Below the pieces are notes generated by a model that did not search any database, was not told where the DNA came from, and was given only the letters and a program-made list of their open reading frames with translations. DNA of 64,000 nucleotides from Hamadaea tsunoensis DSM 44101 (GTDB lineage Bacteria; Actinomycetota; Actinomycetes; Mycobacteriales; Micromonosporaceae), in the NCBI RefSeq assembly GCF_000428945.1, contig NZ_AUAX01000004.1:62001-126000 (forward strand), in the 5' to 3' direction. The translations under genes and the position numbers were made by a program. This document shows positions 28,307 to 50,777 of the stretch, one piece after another. Numbering within the stretch: the first letter of the stretch is position 1; each line of letters begins with the position of its first letter.

Positions 28307-31300
28307 TCAGCCGGGGAGCAGCGGACTGTCGCGGACGGCCGCCAGTGCCTCGTCTCGGCTCCACGCCTCCCCTTCGGCGAGTGCGGCCGCGTACCGCGCC
28401 GGTCCGATCAGTTCCTCGGCGGCCCGCATCACCAGCGCGGTGTCGGTGTCGGTCGCCAGCCGGGCCCCGTGCACGGCCCGGGCCGCGCCGAGCAGCAGCG
28501 CCGCCCGAGCGCCGTCGCCGTGCAGCAGGGCGACACCGGCCAGGCCGATGACGGCGTCGGCGGCGAGCAGGTAATTGCGGTGGCCGGCGGCTTCGTCGAG
28601 GAGGGTCCGGTGCAGCCGGGCGGCTTCGACCGGGCGGTCCGTGGCGGCGGCGATCCAACCGAGACCGCGCAGGGTCTTGAGGCGCAGGAAGCGGGCGTCG
28701 GCGCCGACGGTGGCCCCGGCGAGCGCCTTCGCGTACTGGTCGGCGGCTTCGGCCAGGTCGCCCTGCTGGCGGGCGACGTCCCCGAGCCCCTGGTGCAGTT
28801 CGGGCACGTCGCGGCGGCCCGCGCGGGCGGCGGTCGCGGCGGCGCGGTCGAGATCGGCGCGGGCCGCGGCCAGGTCCCCGGTGAGCACGCGGACCTTGGC
28901 CCGGCGGCAGAGCAGGTCGGTCAGCGTCGCGCTGGCGGTGACCAGCTCGGCGGCGGTGTCGACGGCCTGGCTCATGAGCGCGAGGGTCCCGGGCCAGTCG
29001 CCGCGCCAGGCGGCCAGTTCGGCCAGCAGGTCCAGGGCGTTCGTGGTTCCCCACCGGTCGCCGGTCGCGTGGAAGCCTTCGAGGGCGAGGGTGAGGGCCG
29101 CCTCGGCCGCGTCGGTCCCGCCGTGCGCCACCTCGCGGGTGCCTCGATGCAGCTGGGCGACGGCCTGGGACCAGGCGTCCGCCGCCGCCGGACGGTCCGG
29201 ATCGCGGCAGAGCACGGCCGTCGACGGCCAGCGGGGCGCCTGGTGGGCCACCGGGACCATCGCCCGCGTGAGCCGGCGGGCCGCCGTCGGGCCGGGATCG
29301 GGCGCTGCCATGGCGTTGCCGGCGCACAGCAGGTACTCCTCGGCCAGGTCGGCGGGCGGCGGGTCGCCGACCTGGGCCAGCAGCTCGACGCAGAGCACCG
29401 CGCCTTCGTGGCGCCGCCCGCCCAGGTACCAGTACCAGGACATCGCCGCGGCCATCCGCAGTGCCGACCGCGCGTCGCGGGACGCCGTCCAGCGCAGCGC
29501 GGCCCGCAGGTTGTCGTTCTCGGCGGCCAGCCGGTCCAGCCAGTCGAGCTGCCGGCGACCTCGCAGCTGCGGGTCGGCGGCAGCGGTGAACTGCCCGAAG
29601 TACTCGGCGTGCGCGGTTCGGACGGCGAGTTCCTCACCGGCTTCGGCCAGCTGCTCGGCACAGAAGGCCCGGATCGTCTCCAGCATCCGGTACCGGCCGC
29701 CGGAATAGTCTACAAAGGACTTCTCGGTGAGGCCGGCGAGCAGATCGGGCACGTCCGCTTCCGGCAGGCCGCACACCGCCGTGGCCGAGGCGACGGTCGC
29801 GCCGCCGGCGAACACGGTCAACCGCCGGGCGAGCGTACGCTCCGCCGGGTCGAGCAGCTCCCAGCTCCACCCGGTCACCGCCCGCAGCGTCTGATGCCGG
29901 GGTTCGGCGGTCCGGCTGCCCCGCGACAGCAGCCGGAACCGGTCGGACAGTCCCGCCGCGACCTCGGCCGGCGTGAGCGACCGCAGCCGCGCCGCGGCCA
30001 GCTCGATCGCGAGCGGGAGGCCGTCGAGTCCGGCGCAGATGCGTACCACGTCGTCGATGACGTCCTCGTCGAGCCGGAAATCCGGCCGGACCGTACGCGC
30101 CCGGTCGGCGAACAGGCGTACCGCCGGGCTGGCCAGGCGATCCTCCAGCGCGCAGCCCGCCGCGGCGACGGCGAGCTGGCCGACCGGGAACAGGGCCTCC
30201 CCGGTCAGCCCGAGCGACTCGCGGCTGGTGGCGAGGATGCGCACCTCGGGACACGCGGCGAGCAACCGGTGGGCGAGCCTCGCCGTGGCGTCGACGACGT
30301 GCTCGCAGTTGTCCAGGATGAGCAGCAGCCGGCGGTCGGCGAGCGCGGTCAGCAGGTGCCCCTCGGCGGCCGGCTGCGGGCGCGGTTCGGTGAGGCCGAG
30401 CGCCGCGGCGATGGTCTGCGCGAGCAGCCGGGCGTCGGTCAGCGGCGCCAGCTCGATGAACGCGAGCTCGCCGTCGATCGCGGCGGCGGCCTCGATGGCC
30501 AGTCGGGTCTTGCCGGTGCCGCCCGGCCCGGTGAGGGTCACCAGCCGCTCGCCGGCGAGCAGCCCGGCCAGCCGGGCGAGGTCGTCGTCGCGGCCGACGA
30601 AGCTGGTCAGCTGCGCGGGCGTGCGGCGGGGTCCGGGCGCCGGGCGGTCCCGGAGGATGGCCAGATGGGCGGCGGCCAGCTCCGGCGACGGATCGGCGCC
30701 GAGTTCGGCGGCCAGCGCGCGGCGGGTCCGTTCGTAGAGTTCGAGGGCCTCGGCCTGCTGCCCGCAATCGTAGAGCGCCCGCATCAGCAGTGCGCAGGCC
30801 CGTTCACGCAGCGGCTGCGCGGCCAGCAGATCGGACAGTCCGGCCACGGCGGCCACCGGTTCACCGCAGGCGAGCGCCGCCTCGGCATGGTCCTCGACCG
30901 CGGCCGTCCGCAGCTGGCCGAGACGGGCCGCGTACGCGTGGAGGAACGGCACGTCGGGCAGGTCGGGCCGGTCCCGTCCCTGCCACAGCGCCAGCGCCTG
31001 GGCCAGCAGCCGCTCGGCCGTCACGGGGTCGGCGGCCACGATCCGCCGTCCGTCGGCGGCCAGCCGGGCGAACAGGTGCGCGTCGACGGCGTCGGGTTCG
31101 ACGGCCAGGCGGTACCCGGCCGGACCGGACTCGATCGCGGCGCCGGTGCCGGCCACCAGGCGGCGCAGCCGGGACACCTGCCCGTGCAGCGCGTTCGCGG
31201 CGTCGGCCAGCGGGCCGTCGGCGTACAGGGCCTCGATCAGCCGGTCGGTGCTGACGGTCCGCCCGGGCTCCAGCAGCAGCAGCGCGAGGATGGCCTGGCG

Positions 31301-42796: not shown

Positions 42797-43162
42797 CTAC
42801 CAGTTGATGTGGATCCACGAGGTCTTGTTGTCGGCGTTGTACGGCATCCCGCCGTAGACGCCGGTGCTGATGTGGAAGATCTGGTAGTTGTTGCGGTCGT
42901 AGAAGTACACGTCGCCGCCGGCGGTCATGTTGTCGAAGGAGGAGATGTTCTCGTACCAGACCGTGTTGGCGAAGACCCAGTTGCCGGGCGAGGGCGCCTC
43001 CCACTTCGACCCGCCGCCACCCTGCGAGGTGTAGTAGCAGGACTTGCCCTTGGTGCAGCTGGCATACCCGGCCGCGGCGGCGGGCTGGGCCGCGGCGACC
43101 GCGCCCAGCCCGACGGCCGCCAGAGCCGCGGCGCTGCGGACGAGCGTGCGCTTGACGTTCAT
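42797..43162 (-). CDS. Small secreted protein, peptidase-inhibitor I36-like
   Basis: A 121-residue exported protein. The signal peptide (KRTLVRSAAALAAVGLGAVA) is followed by AQPAAAAG and a mature domain with C36, C42 and many aromatic/Gly residues (YASCTKGKSCYYTSQGGG), resembling the beta/gamma-crystallin-like I36 family such as SMI. It may inhibit secreted proteases or be a structural secreted protein. It forms a short operon with the downstream lipoprotein. Confidence 0.7.
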   Translation of the reverse strand: MNVKRTLVRSAAALAAVGLGAVAAAQPAAAAGYASCTKGKSCYYTSQGGGGSKWEAPSPGNWVFANTVWYENISSFDNMTAGGDVYFYDRNNYQIFHISTGVYGGMPYNADNKTSWIHINW

Positions 43163-43296
43163 GTGATTCCCTTTCCCCGTGAAGTGCGATTCCCCGTGAG
43201 GTGCATCGGCTTGCGGAACGCACGCTAGGGCGCCCGCCTTACCAAAACCTTTCCGCCCATGTCACGGCCGTGAACCGGCGAACCGATGGGATGCGG

Positions 43297-43302
43297 TAGA
43301 GT
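43297..43302 (+). promoter_or_regulatory. Probable -10 box of tRNA-like element 1
   Basis: TAGAGT ends 9 nt before position 1 of the acceptor stem at 43312. Transcription would begin 2-4 nt before the stem. No clear -35 is seen. Confidence 0.5.
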
Positions 43303-43311
43303 GCCGCGCGG

Positions 43312-43387
43312 CAGACCGTAGCGCAGAGGTCGTCGCGCCACTTTGCGGAAATGGAGGACGCCGGTTCGAATCCGGCCGGTCTGTCGC
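43312..43387 (+). ncRNA. tRNA-like element 1 (formal anticodon GCG)
   Basis: A 72-nt cloverleaf by standard numbering: 7-bp acceptor stem CAGACCG/CGGTCTG, TA at 8-9, D stem of 3 bp with D loop AGAGGTCG, G26, anticodon stem CCACT/AATGG (one C-A mismatch), 7-nt loop TTGCGGA with U33, 5-nt variable loop AGGAC, T stem GCCGG/CCGGC with canonical T loop TTCGAAT. The acceptor helix extends four more pairs (GCGG with TCGC) to about 11 bp, and no CCA follows. The ankyrin-type gene starts 57 nt downstream. It could be a regulatory or mimic RNA rather than a decoding tRNA. Confidence 0.7.
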
Positions 43388-43440
43388 TCACCCCTCCGCA
43401 GGTGTCCCGCCCGGAGCCGTCCCGCCTGGAGGTGCCTTTC

Positions 43441-44955
43441 GTGTACGCCGCGCTCCGCGACGATCTGACGCAATGGGCCCGCATCCGGCGGCTGACCACC
43501 GACCACCGGGCGATCGCCGAGGCCGACGCGTACCGGCGGGCGGGGGACTGGCGCCGCGCGGCGCGGGAACAGCACACCGACATCGCGATCGACCTCGACG
43601 CCATCGCGCGCACGTACGGTGCCGCGAGCGCCGAGCGGATCGAGGATGATCTGCGGCACCTCTCCGTCGACCTGCTCTGGTGGCACCTGCCGCGCAACCT
43701 CGCGGGCATGAACACCGTGCTGCCCCGGGTCTCGGCCGTGCTCTTCCCGCGCGAGAACGCCGCGACCGAGCCGGTGATCCGCGTACGCCTGCCGATCGCG
43801 CCGTTCAGCCCGCAGCGGCTGCGGATCACCGCCGAGCCGGTGTCGCGGATGGAGGAGGAGCGCTGGTTCGCCCTGCCCCGGTACGCGTGGGACGTGCGCG
43901 AGGCGGGCAAGGTGGCCCGGGCGTGGGGCTTCGACAGTCCATACGCGAGGGAGGCGTGCCGACTGCTGGCGGACGGACGATCGGCGGACGCGTGGCGGGT
44001 GTGCGGTTTCGAGCTGCCCGCCGGGGACGCCGTCTCGCTCGACCTGCGACCGTCGCAGCCGACGTTCCCGTACGGGCTGCGCGAATTCGCCCGCGAGGCG
44101 GCCAGGGCGTTCGGGGCCGACTCGGTCGCGACGATGCACAACGCGTACCTCGAAATCGGGGTGGGGGAGACGCTCACGGTCGAGCAGAGCGACCGGTCGG
44201 ACTGGTACGAGGTGACGCCGCGGATCCTGGCCCAGCCGGTGCCCGTGGACCTGGCCCTGCTGGAGGCGGGCCTGATGAAGCGGGCGGACCTGCACCCCCT
44301 CGTACGCGAAGCCCTCTATCCCGGCGTCGCGACCGCCCCGCCGCCGCCACCGCAGCCACCGGTCGCCGAACCGGTACGCGTGCGCTGCCGCGGCCAGTGG
44401 CACGAGGTGCGCGTGGCGGACAACGCGCTCCAGCTGACGGCGCACGACGCGACGGAGATCGGCCGCGAGGACGTGCTGAAGTCGTTGGGCGGCAAGCCTT
44501 CCGGCTGCTTCGCCGTCCGCGAGACGTGGTACACGGGCAAGGGGCGGCTGCCGCGCGCGCTCGCCGTGCGGTGCCGGGAGATCCGCGACCGGCTGATGGC
44601 GGGCGACACGGACTGGATTCTCGCGGGGCTGGCGTCCGGCGTCATCGATCCCCTGATGCGCGACTCGACCGGCGGCAGCCTGCTGCACGGCGCGATGTGC
44701 GGCGACTTCGACTGGCTCGCCCCGGCGCTGCTGGCGGCCGGGCTCGACGTGGACACCCCCGACCGGATCGGGCGTACGCCGCTCTACCAGGCGCTGATGG
44801 CAGGCGCGCCCGAGTCGGTGATCCGGCAGCTGATGGCCTGGGGAGCGGATCCGGAGAAGGAGACGGTCCACGAGGCGTCGGTCTACACGGCCGCCTACCG
44901 GGGCGAGCCGTGGGCGGAGCAACTCATCCGCACACTGGCCAAGGAACGGGGATAG
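43441..44955 (+). CDS. Ankyrin-type protein with unknown N-terminal region
   Basis: A 504-residue soluble protein. Residues 1-310 are unrecognised and mixed alpha/beta. Residues about 312-385 form a domain (VRVRCRGQWHEVRV, EIGREDVLKSLGG, GRLPRAL) that is shared with the protein at 46617. The last 120 residues are ankyrin repeats (GGSLLHGAMCGDFDWLAPAL, IGRTPLYQALMAGAPESVI). GTG 43441 has GGAGGTG at good spacing; the longer frame upstream would run through tRNA-like element 1. That element lies 57 nt before it. I infer a protein partner of the RNA. Confidence 0.65.
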   Translation: MYAALRDDLTQWARIRRLTTDHRAIAEADAYRRAGDWRRAAREQHTDIAIDLDAIARTYGAASAERIEDDLRHLSVDLLWWHLPRNLAGMNTVLPRVSAVLFPRENAATEPVIRVRLPIAPFSPQRLRITAEPVSRMEEERWFALPRYAWDVREAGKVARAWGFDSPYAREACRLLADGRSADAWRVCGFELPAGDAVSLDLRPSQPTFPYGLREFAREAARAFGADSVATMHNAYLEIGVGETLTVEQSDRSDWYEVTPRILAQPVPVDLALLEAGLMKRADLHPLVREALYPGVATAPPPPPQPPVAEPVRVRCRGQWHEVRVADNALQLTAHDATEIGREDVLKSLGGKPSGCFAVRETWYTGKGRLPRALAVRCREIRDRLMAGDTDWILAGLASGVIDPLMRDSTGGSLLHGAMCGDFDWLAPALLAAGLDVDTPDRIGRTPLYQALMAGAPESVIRQLMAWGADPEKETVHEASVYTAAYRGEPWAEQLIRTLAKERG

Positions 44956-44994
44956 AGCGGCTTTATCGGGTACGCGCCGGCGGAGGAACGGCGA

Positions 44995-45000
44995 TAGTAT
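44995..45000 (+). promoter_or_regulatory. Probable -10 box of tRNA-like element 2
   Basis: TAGTAT ends 9 nt before the acceptor stem at 45010, the same spacing as in element 1. Confidence 0.5.
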
Positions 45001-45009
45001 GCCGTCCAC

Positions 45010-45085
45010 GGAGCTGTAGCGCAGCAGTCGACGCGCCCGCCTGCACAGCGGGAGAACGCCGGTGCGAATCCGGCCGGCTCCACCA
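45010..45085 (+). ncRNA. tRNA-like element 2 (formal anticodon GCA, CCA encoded)
   Basis: A complete cloverleaf of 72 nt plus ACCA. Acceptor GGAGCTG/CGGCTCC (one G-T), D stem 3 bp with loop AGCAGTCG, G26, perfect anticodon stem CCCGC/GCGGG, loop CTGCACA with U33 and anticodon GCA (Cys), variable loop AGAAC, T stem GCCGG/CCGGC with the non-canonical T loop TGCGAAT (G at 55). Discriminator is A, not the U73 of tRNA-Cys, and position 37 is C. It would be called tRNA-Cys by eye, but the elbow and identity positions are wrong for normal CysRS recognition. The Sel1-type gene begins 78 nt downstream. Confidence 0.7.
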
Positions 45086-45163
45086 ACTTGATCCATACTC
45101 GACATTCGTCGCTGGCACTCAGGAACATTGATACGCGAAGTCGGCAGGAGCACATAATGTCTC

Positions 45164-46222
45164 GTGGCTCCTTCTGACTGGATCGCCCTCGTAGCATTGA
45201 TCATGGCGTTGGCCAGCACTGTGATCTCCGTGTCCCAGACTAGGCTCAACAAACGCGCGTTGCAGATCGAGCTGGACCGCCGCGAGACCGAAGCCGAGCC
45301 GGTCTTCGAGTTCCAGGACTGGTATCGAGTCAGGCCGACAAAGGAAGCGAACTGGGGCAGCCTGATGGGCCTGTTCGAGGGACGAATCGTCTTCAAAGGT
45401 CCGCAGCAGGAGCTGTCGCTGGTAGCTGTCCGCCTCGACGACGACCAATTCTCCTACACCGACAACGACGGACAGCCGCTGAACCCGGAACGGCGTACTC
45501 ACATCCTCACTTTTCAGGATGGCTGGAAGCGCCATCAGGACCGGCTCGTCACCATTGCCGGCCGGACGTATCAGTTCCAAGTGAACGCGCAGCGGCATCT
45601 CATGCCGGGTCGCGAACCGGTCGTCCGGGTTCGGCTGACCATCATGTGCTACGCCGACGAGCGCTCGTGGAATGTGCCGGTCGTGCTGTCATTGCCGCCC
45701 GACAACGCCTACTACGGTCCGCCTCCGACCGGCGACAAGGTTGGCCTCCCGTCCCAGGCGGAGTTGAGCAGCCTGCTCCGCGATGCCATCGGTGGGGATG
45801 CCGACGCGATGTTCGCCTTGGCTCAGGCCCTCGAAAAGGGAGGGCGCGAAGGAGAAGCCGGGCAATGGCTGCGCCGAGCAGCGGATCAGGGGCAGCCCGG
45901 GGCCATGAACAAGCTGGGCGTCTTGCTCAACGCCACCGGCGACCACGAAGCGGCGGAAAGGCTGTACCGCCAGGCGGCTGAGCAGGAACACCTAGCGGCG
46001 ACGACCAACCTCGGGCTGCTTCTCCTCCGCGCCGGAAACGCAGCCGAGGCGGAAGCGTGGCTGACGAAGGCGACACAAGGTGGAGAACCGATAGCACAAC
46101 GTGAACTGATCAGGCTGCTCGTGTCCCAAGGGCGTACAGAAGATGCTCGGCGTTGGCAGCCTTCGGCAGCGGAGGCATCGCCGCCCTCGGACGAGACGGG
46201 TGACTCCGGGCCTGATCAGTAG
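45164..46222 (+). CDS. Membrane-anchored Sel1/TPR repeat protein
   Basis: A 352-residue protein. One N-terminal membrane helix (about residues 6-25, WIALVALIMALASTVISVSQ) is followed by a beta-rich domain (40-190) and then three to four Sel1-like repeats (GDADAMFALAQALEKGGREG, GQPGAMNKLGVLLNATGDHE, HLAATTNLGLLLLRAGNAAE). The C-terminus is acidic. GTG 45164 lies 5 nt after CATAAT, so it is probably leaderless. The preceding tRNA-like element suggests membership of the same system. Third-position GC is lower than in the flanking ankyrin genes. Confidence 0.65.
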   Translation: MAPSDWIALVALIMALASTVISVSQTRLNKRALQIELDRRETEAEPVFEFQDWYRVRPTKEANWGSLMGLFEGRIVFKGPQQELSLVAVRLDDDQFSYTDNDGQPLNPERRTHILTFQDGWKRHQDRLVTIAGRTYQFQVNAQRHLMPGREPVVRVRLTIMCYADERSWNVPVVLSLPPDNAYYGPPPTGDKVGLPSQAELSSLLRDAIGGDADAMFALAQALEKGGREGEAGQWLRRAADQGQPGAMNKLGVLLNATGDHEAAERLYRQAAEQEHLAATTNLGLLLLRAGNAAEAEAWLTKATQGGEPIAQRELIRLLVSQGRTEDARRWQPSAAEASPPSDETGDSGPDQ

Positions 46223-46365
46223 GTCGTACTGTCGCAGGGAGTGCACGGTCACTCCCTAGTTCGTGGGACGTCAGCGTGTGCCTGACGACGTGGATGGCGA
46301 TGTCATACGGCTGCCATTTCGACCGACCAGCCGGGCGGTTGGCCGTTGCCGTCGTGCAAAGGGCC

Positions 46366-46371
46366 TAGGCT
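46366..46371 (+). promoter_or_regulatory. Probable -10 box of tRNA-like element 3
   Basis: TAGGCT ends 10 nt before the acceptor stem at 46382. The 46223-46365 region upstream contains no gene. Confidence 0.5.
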
Positions 46372-46381
46372 TTCGTCCGGT

Positions 46382-46458
46382 GGGGTCGTAGCGCAGAAGT
46401 CGTCGCGCGGGGACTCATAATCCTCGAGGACGCCGGTGCGAATCCGGCCGACCCCACC
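46382..46458 (+). ncRNA. tRNA-like element 3 (formal anticodon CAU)
   Basis: A 74-nt cloverleaf. Acceptor GGGGTCG/CGACCCC, D loop AGAAGTCG, G26, a 6-bp anticodon stem CGGGGA/TCCTCG (one G-T) and loop CTCATAA with anticodon CAU, variable loop AGGAC, T loop TGCGAAT. The acceptor helix can extend three more pairs (GGT with ACC) to 10 bp, and the 3' end reads ACCC rather than ACCA. No protein gene follows it directly; element 4 starts 60 nt further on. A six-pair anticodon stem is unusual for a bacterial elongator tRNA. Confidence 0.7.
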
Positions 46459-46497
46459 CCCCGCGGTCCCACCCCCGCGAATGTCGGGCCGCACCCA

Positions 46498-46503
46498 TAG
46501 AAT
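46498..46503 (+). promoter_or_regulatory. Probable -10 box of tRNA-like element 4
   Basis: TAGAAT ends 12 nt before the acceptor stem at 46516, suggesting that element 4 is transcribed on its own rather than with element 3. Confidence 0.5.
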
Positions 46504-46511
46504 GCCGGTTC

Positions 46512-46591
46512 GAGCGGGGCCGTAGCGCAGAAGTCGTCGCGCCCGGCATACAACCGTGAGGACGCCGGTGCGAATCCGGCCGGCCCCGCTC
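46512..46591 (+). ncRNA. tRNA-like element 4 (formal anticodon UAC, no U33)
   Basis: A 72-nt core (46516-46587): acceptor GGGGCCG/CGGCCCC, D loop AGAAGTCG, G26, anticodon stem CCCGG/CCGTG with one mismatch, loop CATACAA in which position 33 is A instead of the near-universal U, variable loop AGGAC, T loop TGCGAAT. The acceptor helix extends four more pairs (GAGC with GCTC) to 11 bp. No CCA is present. The AAGGAGG of the ankyrin-LRR-MoxR-VWA operon begins only 13 nt after the core. Confidence 0.7.
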
Positions 46592-46616
46592 TCGCCGACG
46601 AAGGAGGGTGCGCGCC

Positions 46617-47213
46617 GTGGAGCAGTGGCCGTGGATACGCGTACGCTGCCTCGGCGCGGCCTGGCACGAGGTCCGCATCGGCGACGGACGGCTGCTGACG
46701 CCCCGGCACTCCGACGCCGAGATCGAGCGGGAGCACGTGCTGCGCGGACTGGGCGGGCCCCTGCTCCCAGGGTGCGCGGAGACCGTCTGGCGGTGGCGTA
46801 CCGCCGACGGGCGGCTGCCCAAGCACCTGAAGCTGCAACGCAACGCGTTCTTCCGGCTGGCCGACGAGGGCCGGACCGGCGAGGTGCTGCGGCAGCTCGA
46901 CGCGGGCTTCGACGTCGCGGCCGCCGGGCCGGGCGGCAGCACCCTGCTGCACTACCTGGGCACGCTGGACGTCGACGCCGTGCTGCCCCGGCTGCTCGCC
47001 GCCGGCCTCGGCGTCCACCGGCGCAACAAGCAGGGCGAGGCGCCGCTGCACCGCGCCGCGCTGGCCGTGTCCCTGCCCGCGGTCGCCGCGCTCCTCGCCG
47101 CGGGCGCGGATCCACTGGTACGCGACCTGTCCGGGCGACGGCCGGGCGAGCGCTGGGCCGGCAAGACCGACGAGCGCCTGCCCCAGGCGATGCTGGAGAT
47201 GCTGAGGCTGTGA
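46617..47213 (+). CDS. Ankyrin-repeat protein, first gene of the MoxR-VWA operon
   Basis: A 198-residue protein that is homologous over its whole length to the C-terminal 195 residues of the protein at 43441. The shared N-terminal domain (IRVRCLGAAWHEVRIGDGRL, EIEREHVLRGLGG, GRLPKHLK) occupies 1-75 and ankyrin repeats follow (GGSTLLHYLGTLDVDAVLPR, QGEAPLHRAALAVSLPAVAA). GTG 46617 has AAGGAGGG upstream. The stop overlaps the next GTG (GTGA). It probably acts as an adaptor of the four-gene system; tRNA-like element 4 ends 30 nt before it. Confidence 0.75.
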   Translation: MEQWPWIRVRCLGAAWHEVRIGDGRLLTPRHSDAEIEREHVLRGLGGPLLPGCAETVWRWRTADGRLPKHLKLQRNAFFRLADEGRTGEVLRQLDAGFDVAAAGPGGSTLLHYLGTLDVDAVLPRLLAAGLGVHRRNKQGEAPLHRAALAVSLPAVAALLAAGADPLVRDLSGRRPGERWAGKTDERLPQAMLEMLRL

Positions 47214-48379
47214 CCGAGAACCCCATTCCGACCCCCGTACGCTGCCCGGTCATCACCGATCCGGAGCGTGCCCTGGCCGACCCCGCGGACTTCGACGCGC
47301 TGCTCGACCGGCTGACCGCCACCGGCGGCGCAGCTCCGTCCACAGCGGACGGAGCGGTCGGGCCGGAGGAGTTCCCGCGCGGGACGATCCAGCCCGACGG
47401 CCGCCTCGACCTGTGCAAGCAGGGCGTCGGCCCGGTGATGGCGGCCCGGCTGGCGAGCACCGCCGCCGCTTCTCCGCTCGTCCGGCATCTGCTGCTGGGC
47501 ACCAACAACCTCGGCGCGACCGGGGCCCAGGCGGTCGCCGACGCGCTCACCCCCGGACACCATCTGGAGACGCTCTACCTGGGCTGCAACCGGATCGACG
47601 CCGACGGCGTCCGCTCGCTGGCCGAGCGGCTCGCGACCGACGGCACCGTCCGGGCACTGTGGCTCAAGCGCAATCCGGTCGGCGACGAGGGCGTGGCGCG
47701 GCTCTGCGTCGCCCTGCTGGCCAACACCACCCTGCGTACGCTGGATCTGGTCAACGTCGGCCTCAGCACCGCGGGGCTGAACCGGCTGGCCGACACCCTC
47801 GCCGCCCGGCCGGTACGCCTGCAGCGGCTGTTCCTCGGCGGCAACGGCTTCGGGCCCGGCGCGGTGCCCGCGCTCGCGAGGCTGGTGCACGACGCGGGAA
47901 TCCGGGAGCTGTACCTGGCCTGCAACCATCTCGGCGACGAGGGCGTGGCCGCGCTCGCGGCGGCGGCGGACGGCGTACCGATGACGTTCGGGTTGGGCGG
48001 CAACGGGATCGGCCCCGCCGGCGTGGCCGCGCTCGCCCGGCACCTGGGCGCGTGGACGGCCCTGGACCTGGCCCGGCCGCCGTCGGAGCGGGCGCTCGGC
48101 GCGACCGGCAACGTCGTCGGCGACGAGGGCGCGGGCCACCTCGCGGCCGCCCTGCCCGGCTCCCGGCTGCGCAAACTGGACCTGCGCACGACCGGCATCC
48201 GGGGCTGGGGTACGCGGCTGCTCATGGAAGCCGCCGAGGACCACCCGACCCTGGCGTACCTGGGCCTGCGTGGGGGAGTGCCGCGCCGGATGCGCCGCGT
48301 GATCTACGCCGGGACGCGTACCCGGCCCGCCCTCGAAGTTCCCGGCGACATCCAGGCGATTGCGAGCGTGTACCGATGA
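47210..48379 (+). CDS. Leucine-rich-repeat (RNase-inhibitor-like) protein
   Basis: A 389-residue protein. About ten LRR units of 28-29 residues follow an N-terminal region of 80 residues; typical units are HHLETLYLGCNRIDADGVRS, GTVRALWLKRNPVGDEGVAR and AGIRELYLACNHLGDEGVAA. This is the RI-type repeat that forms a horseshoe for protein binding. GTG 47210 overlaps the ankyrin stop, and the TGA overlaps the MoxR ATG, so translation is coupled. I infer a recognition or scaffold subunit. Confidence 0.8.
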   Translation: MTENPIPTPVRCPVITDPERALADPADFDALLDRLTATGGAAPSTADGAVGPEEFPRGTIQPDGRLDLCKQGVGPVMAARLASTAAASPLVRHLLLGTNNLGATGAQAVADALTPGHHLETLYLGCNRIDADGVRSLAERLATDGTVRALWLKRNPVGDEGVARLCVALLANTTLRTLDLVNVGLSTAGLNRLADTLAARPVRLQRLFLGGNGFGPGAVPALARLVHDAGIRELYLACNHLGDEGVAALAAAADGVPMTFGLGGNGIGPAGVAALARHLGAWTALDLARPPSERALGATGNVVGDEGAGHLAAALPGSRLRKLDLRTTGIRGWGTRLLMEAAEDHPTLAYLGLRGGVPRRMRRVIYAGTRTRPALEVPGDIQAIASVYR

Positions 48380-49545
48380 CCTCTCCGCTGGCGGCGGCCG
48401 ACACCCTGCTGGCGGCGGTACGCGCGTGGCGTACCGAGCCGGTGCCCGATCCGAAGGTCGAGGCACTCGCGCTGGCGGTCGGCGCGAACCTGCCGGTGCT
48501 GCTGTGGGGCGAGCCCGGCATCGGCAAGTCGGCGACGCTGCGGCAGCTCGCGGACGGTCTCGGCGAACCGCTGGAGACCGTCATCGCCAGTGTGCACGAG
48601 CCGAGCGACTTCGCCGGGCTGCCGATCGTCGGCGAGGACCCGGCCGCGAACGGCATCCCGATGGCCCCGCCCGACTGGGCCGTACGCCTCGCGAAGCGCG
48701 GCACCGGGCTGGTGTTCTTCGACGAGCTGTCCTCGGCGCCGCCGGCCGTGCAGGCCGCCCTGCTGCGGGTGGTCCTCGAACGGCACGTCGGCAGTCTCCA
48801 GCTGCCCGACACGGTACGCATCGTGGCCGCCGCGAACCCGCCCGCGAGTGCCGCCGACGGCTGGCACCTGAGCCCGCCGCTGGCCAACCGTTTCGTCCAT
48901 CTGCAGTGGACGCACGACCCGGCCGTGGTGGCGCGCGGGCTCGCGGGGACGTGGCCCGGCGTACAGGTGCCCGTGGTCGATCCGGGCCGGGTGGCGAACG
49001 CGACGGCCCGGGCGCGCGGCATCATCGCCGGTTTCCTCACCGCCCGGCCGGGTCTGGCGCACCACCTGCCCACCGACGCCGAGGGCCGGGGCGGGGCGTG
49101 GCCGTCGCCGCGTACCTGGGAGATGGTGCTGCGCCTGGTCGCCGTCCAGTACGCCGCCGGCGCGTCCCAGGAGGCGCTCGCGCTGACGGTCGTCGGCGCG
49201 GTCGGCGACGGCGCGGGACTGGAGTTCCTCACGTACATCGACCAGCTGGACCTGCCCGACCCGGAACGCGTCCTCGCCCGGCCGGACGACTTCCAGCTGC
49301 CCAAGCGCGGCGACCGCCAGCTGGCCTGCCTGACCGCCATCGTGTCGGCCGTGCAGAGCCGCACCACCCGGCAGCGCTGGGAGGCCGCGTGGGTGGTGCT
49401 GGCGCAAGCCGCCAAGGCCGGCGTACCGGACGTGGCGGCGCGGGCGGCGATGGACCTCGCCGCCATGCGCCAGCCCGACTGGACGGTTCCGCCCACAGTG
49501 GACGCTTTCGTCGACGTGCTGCGCCTGTCCGGCCGGCTGCGGTGA
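48376..49545 (+). CDS. MoxR-type AAA+ ATPase
   Basis: A 389-residue ATPase: Walker A GEPGIGKS at 45-52, Walker B LVFFDE at 112-117, sensor 1 AAANPP near 155, the arginine-finger segment PPLANRFVH near 170, and a C-terminal lid. The HEPSDFAGLPI loop is typical of MoxR proteins that act with VWA-domain partners as chaperones. It overlaps both neighbours by 4 nt and is directly followed by its likely VWA partner. Confidence 0.88.
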   Translation: MTSPLAAADTLLAAVRAWRTEPVPDPKVEALALAVGANLPVLLWGEPGIGKSATLRQLADGLGEPLETVIASVHEPSDFAGLPIVGEDPAANGIPMAPPDWAVRLAKRGTGLVFFDELSSAPPAVQAALLRVVLERHVGSLQLPDTVRIVAAANPPASAADGWHLSPPLANRFVHLQWTHDPAVVARGLAGTWPGVQVPVVDPGRVANATARARGIIAGFLTARPGLAHHLPTDAEGRGGAWPSPRTWEMVLRLVAVQYAAGASQEALALTVVGAVGDGAGLEFLTYIDQLDLPDPERVLARPDDFQLPKRGDRQLACLTAIVSAVQSRTTRQRWEAAWVVLAQAAKAGVPDVAARAAMDLAAMRQPDWTVPPTVDAFVDVLRLSGRLR

Positions 49546-50777
49546 CCGAATCTCCCGAGCCGCCTTCGCCGGACGAGGAGCCCGTGCGGCTGCCGGCGCT
49601 CGACCGGACCAAGCTGCTCGCGGCGCGGTTCCGGGCGGCCGGCGACCGGCCGTATTTCGCCACGGCCCTCTACAGCCTGACCGTCGTCGAGGACCACCGG
49701 ATCCCGACGATGGGCGTCGACCGGCACTGGCGCTGCTACGTGTCGCCGGCGTTCGTCGACCGCACGCCCGTCGACGAGCTGGCCGCGGTGTGGATCCACG
49801 AGGCGGCGCACCTGCTGCGCGACCACCACGGCCGGGCCGACCGGCTGCCCGAGGTGGACCGGCACGACCGCCGCCGGCTCAACGTCGCCCAGGACCTGGA
49901 GATCAACGACGACCTGCTGGCGGACGGCCTGCCGCTGCCCGCCGACCGGGTCGACCCGGCCGGCCTCGGGCTGCCGACCGGACTGCTGTTCGAGGCGTAC
50001 CTGCCGATGGTGCCGCCCACCGAGCACCACTACGACTGCGGCTCGGGCGCGCACGGCCTGCCCCGGCCGTGGGATCTCCACGCGGGCAACGCCGACGCGC
50101 CCGCCGTCAGCGACCCGGAGGCCGCCAGCATCCGGCGCGCCACCGCCGCAGCGATCCGCCAGGCCGCGAAGAGCCGTGGCGACCTGCCGGCCGGCTGGGA
50201 GCGGTGGGCGCAGACGGTGCTGGAGCCGGTGGTGGACTGGCGGCGCGCGTTCACCGGTGCGATCCGCGAGGCGGTCGCGTGGGCCAGCGGCGCGGTCGAC
50301 TACACCTACCAGCGTCCCTCGCGCCGCTCGGTGGCGCTGCCCGGCACCGTCCTGCCCCGGCTGCGCCAGCCCATCCCGCGGGTCGCCGTCGTCGTCGACA
50401 CGTCCGGCTCGATGGGCGAGGACGAACTCGGCGTCGCCCTCGCGGAGATCGGCGGCGTGCTGCGCGCGGTCGGCATCGGCGGCAACCGCGTCACCGTCCT
50501 GTCCTGCGACGCGGCCGTGCACGTGGTACGCCGGGTCGCCACCCTCGGCGAAGTCGTCCTCGCCGGTGGCGGCGGCACCGACATGCGGGTCGGGATCGCG
50601 GCGGCGATCGAGGTCCCGGCCGTACCCGACATCGTCGTCGTGCTGACCGACGGCTACACGCCGTGGCCGGACCGGGCGCCGGGGCGTACGCGGGTGGTGG
50701 CGGGGCTGCTGGGGGCGGGGCCGACGCCGCCGGCGTGGATCACCACGATCGCCATCCCGCTCGTGGCGCCCCGGTGA
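49542..50777 (+). CDS. DUF2201-type metallopeptidase-like protein with VWA-like domain
   Basis: A 411-residue protein. The N-terminal domain carries HEAAH at 86-90, the HExxH zinc site of the putative metallopeptidase family (DUF2201 N-terminal). The C-terminal domain is VWA-like, with DTSGS at 286-290, GGGGTDM and VLTDG supplying an intact MIDAS for Mg2+. In MoxR systems the VWA protein passes substrates to the ATPase. Whether the HEAAH site is proteolytic is not clear. GTG 49542 overlaps the MoxR stop, and the gene ends the operon. Confidence 0.85.
   Translation: MTESPEPPSPDEEPVRLPALDRTKLLAARFRAAGDRPYFATALYSLTVVEDHRIPTMGVDRHWRCYVSPAFVDRTPVDELAAVWIHEAAHLLRDHHGRADRLPEVDRHDRRRLNVAQDLEINDDLLADGLPLPADRVDPAGLGLPTGLLFEAYLPMVPPTEHHYDCGSGAHGLPRPWDLHAGNADAPAVSDPEAASIRRATAAAIRQAAKSRGDLPAGWERWAQTVLEPVVDWRRAFTGAIREAVAWASGAVDYTYQRPSRRSVALPGTVLPRLRQPIPRVAVVVDTSGSMGEDELGVALAEIGGVLRAVGIGGNRVTVLSCDAAVHVVRRVATLGEVVLAGGGGTDMRVGIAAAIEVPAVPDIVVVLTDGYTPWPDRAPGRTRVVAGLLGAGPTPPAWITTIAIPLVAPR

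What the first reader, a model, noticed from the sequence alone, without database searches (positions are those of the whole stretch)
43312..46591. A four-member family of tRNA-like RNAs with one conserved elbow and variable arms
Seen: at 43312, 45010, 46382 and 46516, 72-74 nt segments fold into cloverleaves with the same positions 8-26, variable loop and T arm. Core words are TAGCGCAG, GTCG, CGCG, (A)GGAC and GCCGGTGCGAATCCGGC (TTCGAAT in the first). Acceptor stems and anticodon arms differ, giving formal anticodons GCG, GCA, CAU and UAC. Ordinary tRNA genes of one organism do not share an identical elbow while differing in identity regions, and pseudogene copies would not keep all stems paired by different sequences. 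Inference: a functional tRNA-mimic family, perhaps a bait, guide or sensor RNA for the adjacent proteins.
Basis: partly seen in the sequence, partly recalled or inferred. Interest (0 to 1): 0.95.

Follow-up and report, generated by a model that had tools for sequence, protein, structure and literature searches.

The report
tRNA-mimic RNA family heading AAA+/metallopeptidase operons
Four RNAs in this actinobacterial genome look like transfer RNAs but belong to a widespread family most of whose members probably cannot decode and which travels with one set of protein genes, which points to an undescribed stress or defence system built around a tRNA look-alike.

Summary
In detail: four tRNA-shaped RNAs with one constant elbow and T arm. 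They are members of a large, patchy actinobacterial family. Most copies differ from tRNA. The acceptor helix is prolonged by about 3-5 bp of flanking sequence (112 copies, mean 3.05 bp; 41 ordinary tRNAs of the same genome, mean 0.15). A promoter-like TANNNT box usually lies 8-13 nt upstream. The D arm has a bulge. 57 of 152 copies keep a decoding-type anticodon loop. Positions 18 and 55 covary (G/U 129, A/G 22, G/C 1). The RNAs head operons for a Zn-ribbon/SDR-like protein, LRR and ankyrin proteins, a MoxR AAA+ ATPase and a DUF2201 metallopeptidase-VWA protein. In 150 Streptomyces, after dropping one doubtful hit on each side, 16 of 16 genomes with the ankyrin gene carry the RNA, against 11 of 134 without; extra copies show the same bias (11 of 16 versus 11 of 134). 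Between two same-genus genomes the anticodon arm at one position differs completely while the body is kept. Best reading: a non-translating tRNA mimic acting as bait or sensor for the AAA+/metallopeptidase machine. Family and association are well supported; mechanism is inference. My searches found no description of it.

The parts
43297..43302 (+). TAGAGT, -10-like box of RNA copy 1, ending 9 nt before nt 1
   Evidence: read; TANNNT boxes at 8-13 nt upstream across the family
43312..43384 (+). tRNA-mimic RNA copy 1 (G18/U55 type; formal anticodon GCG); helix prolonged by 43308-43311 with 43384-43387
   Evidence: (87.7 bits); same arm class before the same ankyrin gene in two same-genus genomes
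43441..44955 (+). ankyrin-repeat protein with a conserved N-terminal region
   Evidence: two ankyrin models at E 0.0033, below their cut-offs; AlphaFold mean pLDDT 83.7; ankyrin-repeat matches
44995..45000 (+). TAGTAT, -10-like box of RNA copy 2, ending 9 nt before nt 1
   Evidence: read
45010..45082 (+). tRNA-mimic RNA copy 2 (A18/G55 type; GCA arm; no prolonged helix; followed by CCA)
   Evidence: (82.0 bits); identical arm in Catellatospora copies
45164..46222 (+). TPR/Sel1-repeat protein downstream of copy 2; not seen as a recurrent neighbour in the other loci
   Evidence: its cluster holds only window entries
46366..46371 (+). TAGGCT, -10-like box of RNA copy 3, ending 10 nt before nt 1
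   Evidence: read
46382..46456 (+). tRNA-mimic RNA copy 3 (A18/G55; 6-bp anticodon stem; formal CAU); helix prolonged by 46379-46381 with 46456-46458
   Evidence: (84.7 bits)
46498..46503 (+). TAGAAT, -10-like box of RNA copy 4, ending 12 nt before nt 1
   Evidence: read
46516..46588 (+). tRNA-mimic RNA copy 4 (A18/G55; loop CAUACAA without U33); helix prolonged by 46512-46515 with 46588-46591
   Evidence: (88.2 bits)
46608..47213 (+). short ankyrin protein, similar to the C-terminal part of the 43441-44955 product
   Evidence: ankyrin models below their cut-offs; cross-match to the large ankyrin gene and to short ankyrin genes of two same-genus genomes
47210..48379 (+). leucine-rich-repeat protein
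   Evidence: LRR_6, 65.7 bits; recurrent downstream gene; 71% identical in two same-genus genomes
48376..49545 (+). MoxR-type AAA+ ATPase
   Evidence: AAA_5 33.8 bits; bpMoxR 22.0 bits, below its cut-off of 27; recurrent
49542..50777 (+). DUF2201 protein: putative Zn metallopeptidase (HEAAH read in the translation) plus VWA-like domain
   Evidence: DUF2201_N 96.5 bits, DUF2201 58.0 bits; recurrent; a DUF2201_N protein also near the L216 locus

Best explanation
These are mostly non-translating tRNA-mimic RNAs belonging to an undescribed actinobacterial system. Shown by sequence: a constant elbow and T arm, an acceptor helix prolonged by flanking bases that would hide the CCA end in most copies, a bulged D arm, class-specific or hypervariable anticodon arms, and conserved co-location with SDR/Zn-ribbon, LRR, ankyrin, MoxR and DUF2201-VWA genes. 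Inferred: each RNA is transcribed from its own promoter starting near the base of the helix, and is bound through the elbow and long helix by the system proteins (the SDR-like protein has a basic helix and a Zn ribbon; ankyrin/LRR proteins as adaptors). The exposed anticodon arm acts as bait. When a tRNA-attacking agent (phage or toxin tRNase, or a modifying or processing enzyme) cuts or occupies it, the MoxR ATPase switches on the DUF2201-VWA metallopeptidase. Solitary copies would widen the repertoire of baits in trans.
For: Family and model separation. Prolonged helix: (mean 3.05 bp, shuffled mean 1.59, maximum 1.97) against ordinary tRNAs, (mean 0.15, none above 1 bp). Non-decoding arms: 95 of 152 lack a 7-nt U33 loop on a stem paired in the tRNA register; operon-linked 9 of 63 canonical. 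18/55 covariation. Gene association. Extra copies more frequent in genomes with the system: (Fisher p = 1.4e-7, phylogeny ignored). Hypervariable arms with kept pairing: (22 copies, 18 distinct arms, 107 of 111 stem cells paired; mean identity 0.98 over 8-26, 0.97 over the T arm, 0.60 over same-length arms). Precedent: the idea that a tRNA-like domain may act as competitive inhibitor of an anticodon nuclease is proposed by the authors of PMC7790460 (passages seen).
Against: No transcript, cleavage or binding data. PADLOC and NCBIfam do not place the proteins in a known defence or conflict system. Operon-head arms of the SDR/LRR type are conserved across genera, so not all arms look like arms-race baits. 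Solitary copies mostly keep a canonical loop (29 of 43), which fits a charged tRNA too. 11 of 134 Streptomyces without the ankyrin gene carry solitary copies, 12 in all, and none of the system genes was found beside them. 18 of 112 copies have no prolonged helix. The helix control is imperfect: 12 of its 41 tRNAs come from one array and some are doubtful calls, and two are identical. Minimum-energy folding does not recover the cloverleaf for all four copies. The ankyrin model gives only generic ankyrin matches in the PDB. No -35 element was found.
Confidence: 0.4

Rival explanations
1. Cis-acting leader: the tRNA-like fold at the 5' end of the operon mRNA is a regulatory or processing device (RNase P/Z cleavage, 5'-end protection, or sensing of tRNA-maturation capacity), with no trans function.
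For: The RNA usually begins near a -10-like box and lies 20-111 nt before a ribosome-site-like start in the 30 of 63 linked copies where my pattern found one. It precedes whichever gene comes first (SDR, LRR, ankyrin; TPR in the window). No terminator-like site in the window region.
Against: 43 of 112 copies have no system gene in the fetched stretch; 30 of these show at least 1.5 kb downstream and 25 at least 1.5 kb on both sides. Extra copies are more frequent in genomes that have the system.
Confidence: 0.25
2. Y-RNA-like scaffold: the tRNA mimic is a structural subunit that tethers or gates the VWA protein, as bacterial Y RNAs do with the VWA-containing Ro/Rsr protein, without being a bait.
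For: Same design idea: tRNA-like module plus a terminal helix, and a VWA partner (domain make-up of Ro recalled; Y RNA tethering in PMC7790460 passages).
Against: No TROVE (Ro) match in this genome; only the tRNA model reaches gathering in the window; hypervariable arms and several copies per genome are not explained.
Confidence: 0.2
3. Genuine tRNAs or moonlighting isoacceptors that are charged (for example the Trp-CCA-armed solitary copies or the GCA-armed copies).
For: ARAGORN and Rfam call them tRNAs; solitary copies keep a canonical loop in 29 of 43; CTCCAAA is the commonest intact loop (23 copies); copy 2 is followed by CCA.
Against: nt 73 pairs with -1 in 94 of 112 copies; no U33, altered loop length or a stem not paired in the tRNA register in 95 of 152; ordinary Cys(GCA), Met and Val(TAC) tRNA genes are present in the same genome; three window copies rank 57th to 59th of the genome's 60 tRNA-model matches and copy 2 ranks 46th.
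Confidence: 0.07
4. Relics of tRNA genes used as integration sites by mobile elements.
For: Patchy distribution; some copies on Streptomyces plasmids.
Against: Clustered promoter-like spacing, compensatory changes, covarying 18/55 and recurrent order with the same protein genes across genera; no real member among the 25 viral stretches that matched the pattern.
Confidence: 0.03

Closest known systems
Bacterial Y RNA with a tRNA-like domain (YrlA with Rsr, RtcB operon)
   Same: A non-coding tRNA mimic encoded beside a VWA-containing protein (domain make-up recalled); a competitive-inhibitor role against an anticodon nuclease was suggested by the authors of PMC7790460 (passages).
   Different: No TROVE protein in this genome, a full cloverleaf with an anticodon arm, several copies per genome, different protein partners, no Y-RNA match at gathering.
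Pseudo-tRNA tRNA-Other of Bacillus cereus (PMC3399842; passages seen)
   Same: A tRNA-like RNA with a Trp anticodon and a role outside translation; here many solitary Streptomyces copies also carry a Trp-type arm.
   Different: There it is part of a larger regulatory RNA; the passages seen mention no linked SDR/LRR/ankyrin/MoxR/VWA genes, and the word acceptor does not occur in the main text.
MoxR-VWA ternary conflict systems (PMC7159879; search listing with start of abstract, and found passages only)
   Same: A MoxR AAA+ ATPase beside a VWA protein; the bpMoxR profile matches weakly.
   Different: bpMoxR below its cut-off; VWA is of the DUF2201 metallopeptidase type; in that paper 'tRNA' occurs once, in the reference list.
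Ordinary actinobacterial tRNA
   Same: Cloverleaf, G19-C56, G15-C48 (position numbering mine), T arm.
   Different: Bulged D arm, prolonged helix in most copies, A18/G55 subclass, non-decoding arms in 95 of 152.

Membership tests
tRNA (decoding) | Cloverleaf recognised by the tRNA model | tested here: met
   45.8-54.0 bits, above gathering 29
tRNA (decoding) | 7-nt anticodon loop with U33 on a paired stem | tested here: not met
   family: 57 of 152 distinct copies meet it, 95 do not; four Trp-armed copies counted as broken could pair in a shifted register. Window copies 1-3 meet it, copy 4 does not
tRNA (decoding) | Free discriminator/CCA end after a 7-bp acceptor | tested here: not met
   nt 73 can pair with -1 in 94 of 112 copies, 6 of 41 in ordinary tRNAs; copy 2 in the window does not pair
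tRNA (decoding) | Aminoacylation and use on ribosomes | not testable with these tools
   needs RNA work
Bacterial Y RNA / Ro RNP | TROVE-domain (Ro/Rsr) protein partner | tested here: not met
   PF05731: no match in G000; the control rang in Deinobacterium
Bacterial Y RNA / Ro RNP | Match to a Y RNA family in Rfam | tested here: not met
   only RF00005 reaches gathering in the window
MoxR-VWA ternary conflict system | bpMoxR-type ATPase above the curated cut-off | tested here: not met
   22.0 against 27 bits
MoxR-VWA ternary conflict system | AAA+ ATPase encoded next to a VWA protein | tested here: met
   48376-49545 and 49542-50777
Known anti-phage defence system (PADLOC models) | Strong match of the protein genes | tested here: not met
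   six window proteins scanned; best E 8.1e-5, to a candidate model (PDC-M72A)

The most novel reading that the evidence does not exclude
An undescribed class of RNA-based conflict system: cells carry sets of tRNA mimics with one protein-binding body and interchangeable, partly hypervariable anticodon arms, many of them paired with an ankyrin, LRR or SDR gene, that together monitor attack on tRNA and trigger an AAA+-driven metallopeptidase response. It would be a repertoire of RNA baits.
Probability: 0.3. Interest if true: 0.95.

Novelty: categorically new. Interest (0 to 1): 0.85.

Why it matters
The tRNA finders that I ran call these RNAs tRNAs, and gaps in the locus tags of two plasmid records suggest that public annotation does the same, so they would be hidden in plain sight. 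If the reading holds, actinobacteria including Streptomyces carry a multi-copy RNA sensor family coupled to an AAA+/metallopeptidase machine, and a laboratory model strain (Streptomyces venezuelae NRRL B-65442, solitary plasmid copy) makes the RNA directly testable. The A18/G55 exchange at a very conserved tertiary contact of tRNA (conservation recalled) is also of interest to RNA structural biology.

Tried and rejected
Ordinary tRNA set: rejected for most copies, left open for copy 2 and for the solitary Trp-armed copies. Phage origin: the pattern scan of viral contigs gave 25 stretches, none above 25.1 bits with the model. Y RNA: no TROVE protein in the genome. PDB comparisons: the 50 printed matches of the ankyrin model are ankyrin-repeat proteins or fusions as far as their titles show; the printed matches of the SDR model and profile are SDR-type enzymes; the second structural aligner was not available; no PDB sequence match to the DUF2201 protein at E 0.01. 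Association of the 'housekeeping' SDR paralogue with the RNA: not seen in 9 of 10 loci inspected; the tenth (G343, 610 bits) has two tRNA-like RNAs. Consensus scan: no sigma-70 site and no terminator-like site in 43000-47300, so the promoter claim rests on spaced TANNNT boxes only. Minimum-energy folding does not recover the D and anticodon arms for all four copies; the structure claim rests on alignment and covariation, and the invariance of the D stem is partly built in by the search pattern. Literature searches found no description of this family; subscription papers and preprints are mostly not held, and Burroughs and Aravind 2016 (recalled as relevant) could not be read.
Full report
1. 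Observation. Rfam and ARAGORN place four tRNA-like RNAs at the stated coordinates, all on the + strand. In the whole genome (9.48 Mb, 68 contigs) the tRNA model lists 60 places; the four score 54.0, 50.1, 47.1 and 45.8 bits, ranks 46, 57, 58 and 59 of 60. A covariance model built from 112 distinct family copies separates them cleanly: 82.0-88.2 bits against at most 61.8 for any other place in the genome. The model contains the four copies, so their own scores are partly by construction.

2. A family. Of 131 sites 124 passed as the family, 123 after removing one false hit, leaving 112 distinct sequences with the window's four. By record title they come from actinobacteria (Streptomyces, Actinomadura, Micromonospora, Catellatospora, Actinoplanes, Dactylosporangium, Lentzea, Nocardiopsis and others) except one contig labelled Myxococcota (L117), which carries the RNA with SDR and LRR genes. 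In an even sample of the class, scored with strict filters, 13 of 296 genomes, this one included, have a match of 77 bits or more. In the bacterial family 43 of 150 genomes have the core, 98 sites against 4 for the backward pattern; by their core letters at least two of the 98 look like chance matches. The window's genus is probably Hamadaea: a same-genus genome (G331) has a contig of 121,598 bases, the length of the Hamadaea record behind L067.

3. Anatomy. The named structure is paired in 94.5% of 2340 cells; 13 of 21 pairs have changes on both sides; the covariation score is 0.393 against 0.164 in shuffles and at most 0.140 in slid versions. Differences from tRNA: (a) D arm GCGC with a bulge before CGC; its invariance is partly forced by the search pattern. 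(b) Flanking bases -1 to -5 pair with 73 to 77 above independent expectation (94 against 62, 90 against 73, 93 against 72, 64 against 45, 63 against 50 of 112) but not at -6 (32 against 45); mean run 3.05 bp, shuffles 1.59 with maximum 1.97. Forty-one ARAGORN tRNAs of the same genome have mean 0.15 and at most 1 bp; 12 of them come from one array and some calls are doubtful. 18 of 112 copies, window copy 2 among them, have no prolongation. (c) Of 106 TANNNT boxes in the 40 nt upstream of the 112 copies, 96 end 8-13 nt before nt 1, which puts the expected start near the base of the prolonged helix; no -35 consensus was found in the window. (d) Positions 18 and 55: G/U 129, A/G 22, G/C 1 of 152 distinct copies; G19 and C56 are kept in 152 of 152 (one false row set aside). 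The A/G type was seen in the window's genus, in Catellatospora and in one further genus (G314); it may be one ancestral event. (e) Arms: 57 of 152 have a 7-nt U33 loop on a paired stem; 36 lack U33, 21 have 6- or 8-nt loops, 38 do not pair in the tRNA register, of which four Trp-armed ones could pair in a shifted register. Operon-linked copies are canonical in 9 of 63; copies without a system gene in the fetched stretch in 29 of 43, and in 21 of the 30 that show at least 1.5 kb downstream.

4. Neighbours. Clustering of neighbouring genes found recurrent same-strand families just downstream: SDR-like, LRR, ankyrin, MoxR and DUF2201-VWA. Two all-antisense clusters look like shadow frames of these genes. 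In 150 family genomes 73 of 98 sites lie within 5 kb of an SDR or ankyrin system gene, and 53 have one on the same strand beginning within 700 nt downstream. In 150 Streptomyces genomes 28 have the core (45 sites, against 3 backward) and 17 an ankyrin hit. After dropping one doubtful hit on each side, 16 of 16 system genomes carry the RNA against 11 of 134 others (Fisher 9.5e-15), and 11 of 16 against 11 of 134 carry a copy beyond the linked one (1.4e-7). In 15 of the 16 one copy lies on the same strand just upstream of the gene set; in G578 the gene lies at a contig edge (coordinates). Keeping G445 would make it 12 of 134, but it proved not tRNA-like; keeping G454 would make it 16 of 17. The 12 copies of the 11 genomes without the ankyrin gene were read: 7 carry a Trp-type arm, and ten system-protein queries found nothing in the 8-9 kb around them, so they are solitary. 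These tests ignore phylogeny.

5. Turnover of arms. In two same-genus genomes the large ankyrin, short ankyrin, LRR, MoxR and DUF2201 genes are present (45-84% identity), and the RNA before the large ankyrin gene keeps its arm class. Between their short ankyrin and LRR genes both have an A18/G55 RNA with the same acceptor but completely different, still paired arms (CACGCCTTCAGAGCGTG and CATGGCAGCACCCATG). In the window the corresponding RNAs stand before the short ankyrin gene, so the place is not strictly the same, and their arms differ again. Over 22 A18/G55 copies there are 18 distinct arms; 107 of 111 stem cells pair, against a fraction of 0.64 (maximum 0.77) when halves are shuffled; mean identity is 0.98 over 8-26, 0.97 over the T arm, 0.84 over the 5' acceptor strand and 0.60 over same-length arms.

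6. Proteins. The SDR-like protein (model made on the L037 sequence) has a predicted helix 24-66 rich in basic residues, a CxxC...CxxC ribbon, and a Rossmann domain that matches SDR enzymes. Four residues before the invariant Lys370 stands Thr instead of the usual Tyr (alignment; motif recalled), so it may bind a dinucleotide without classical catalysis. The window's locus lacks it; one paralogue lies elsewhere in the genome (C1:245531), and ARAGORN finds no tRNA-like RNA in the 7 kb around it. The ankyrin model has mean pLDDT 83.7 and matches only ankyrin repeats. The DUF2201 protein has a metallopeptidase and a VWA-like domain.

7. Wider family. Related RNAs with other D loops (GGCAG, GGTGG, GGTTG) stand singly or in tandem before the same SDR family in three Streptomyces loci (L216-L218) and in G343 (L233); at L216 a DUF2201_N protein and an AAA ATPase are near, in another orientation. 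This supports the link of the RNA with the SDR and AAA/DUF2201 proteins.

8. Mechanism. Shown: family, anatomy, association. Inferred: non-translating role, protein binding through the elbow and long helix, exposed arm as bait, MoxR-driven activation of the metallopeptidase. The bait reading accounts for constant body plus variable arms, for solitary copies, and for their likeness to real anticodon loops (CTCCAAA in 23 copies). Against it: conserved arms at SDR/LRR operon heads, and solitary copies in genomes without the ankyrin gene. The cis-leader reading accounts for the position but not for solitary copies. A Y-RNA-like scaffold remains possible.

9. Known systems. See Closest known systems and Membership tests. 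Published precedents seen: the B. cereus pseudo-tRNA (passages) and the YrlA tRNA-like domain with its suggested inhibitor role (passages). The S. venezuelae genome paper (passages) reports that curing plasmid pSVJI1 had no obvious phenotypic consequences; a 158-kb S. venezuelae NRRL B-65442 plasmid record, by size and strain the same, carries a solitary copy, which therefore seems dispensable under the conditions used.

Noticed in passing
window 29918-30013 (-): ARAGORN calls a 96-nt tRNA-Val (CAC) that Rfam's tRNA model does not support at gathering; probably a false call.
   Followed up: no
L149 (G000:C15:70700-72150): A tight array with 12 ARAGORN tRNA calls in 1.45 kb, several of low tRNA-model score, resembling phage-type tRNA arrays.
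   Followed up: no
L216 5855-6093 (-), L217 6151-6302 (-), L218 6393-6465 (-): Related tRNA-like RNAs with a GGCAG D loop, single or in tandem (formal anticodons Cys/Glu/Ala, Ser/Ala, Glu), directly before an SDR-family gene in Streptomyces.
   Followed up: partly
L219 265-339 (+) and 1107-3658 (+): A related tRNA-like RNA lies about 0.8 kb before an EACC1 protein and a caspase-TPR protein, components known from conflict systems.
   Followed up: partly
L117 3595-3667 (+): A contig labelled Myxococcota carries the RNA with SDR and LRR genes; contamination or transfer not excluded.
   Followed up: partly
L194 6018-6092 (+), L195 6003-6077 (+): Two Streptomyces plasmids carry solitary Trp-armed copies; a gap in the locus tags suggests they are annotated as RNA genes in the source records.
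   Followed up: partly
window 42797-43162 (-): A small protein with a peptidase inhibitor I36 domain lies divergently upstream of RNA copy 1.
   Followed up: no
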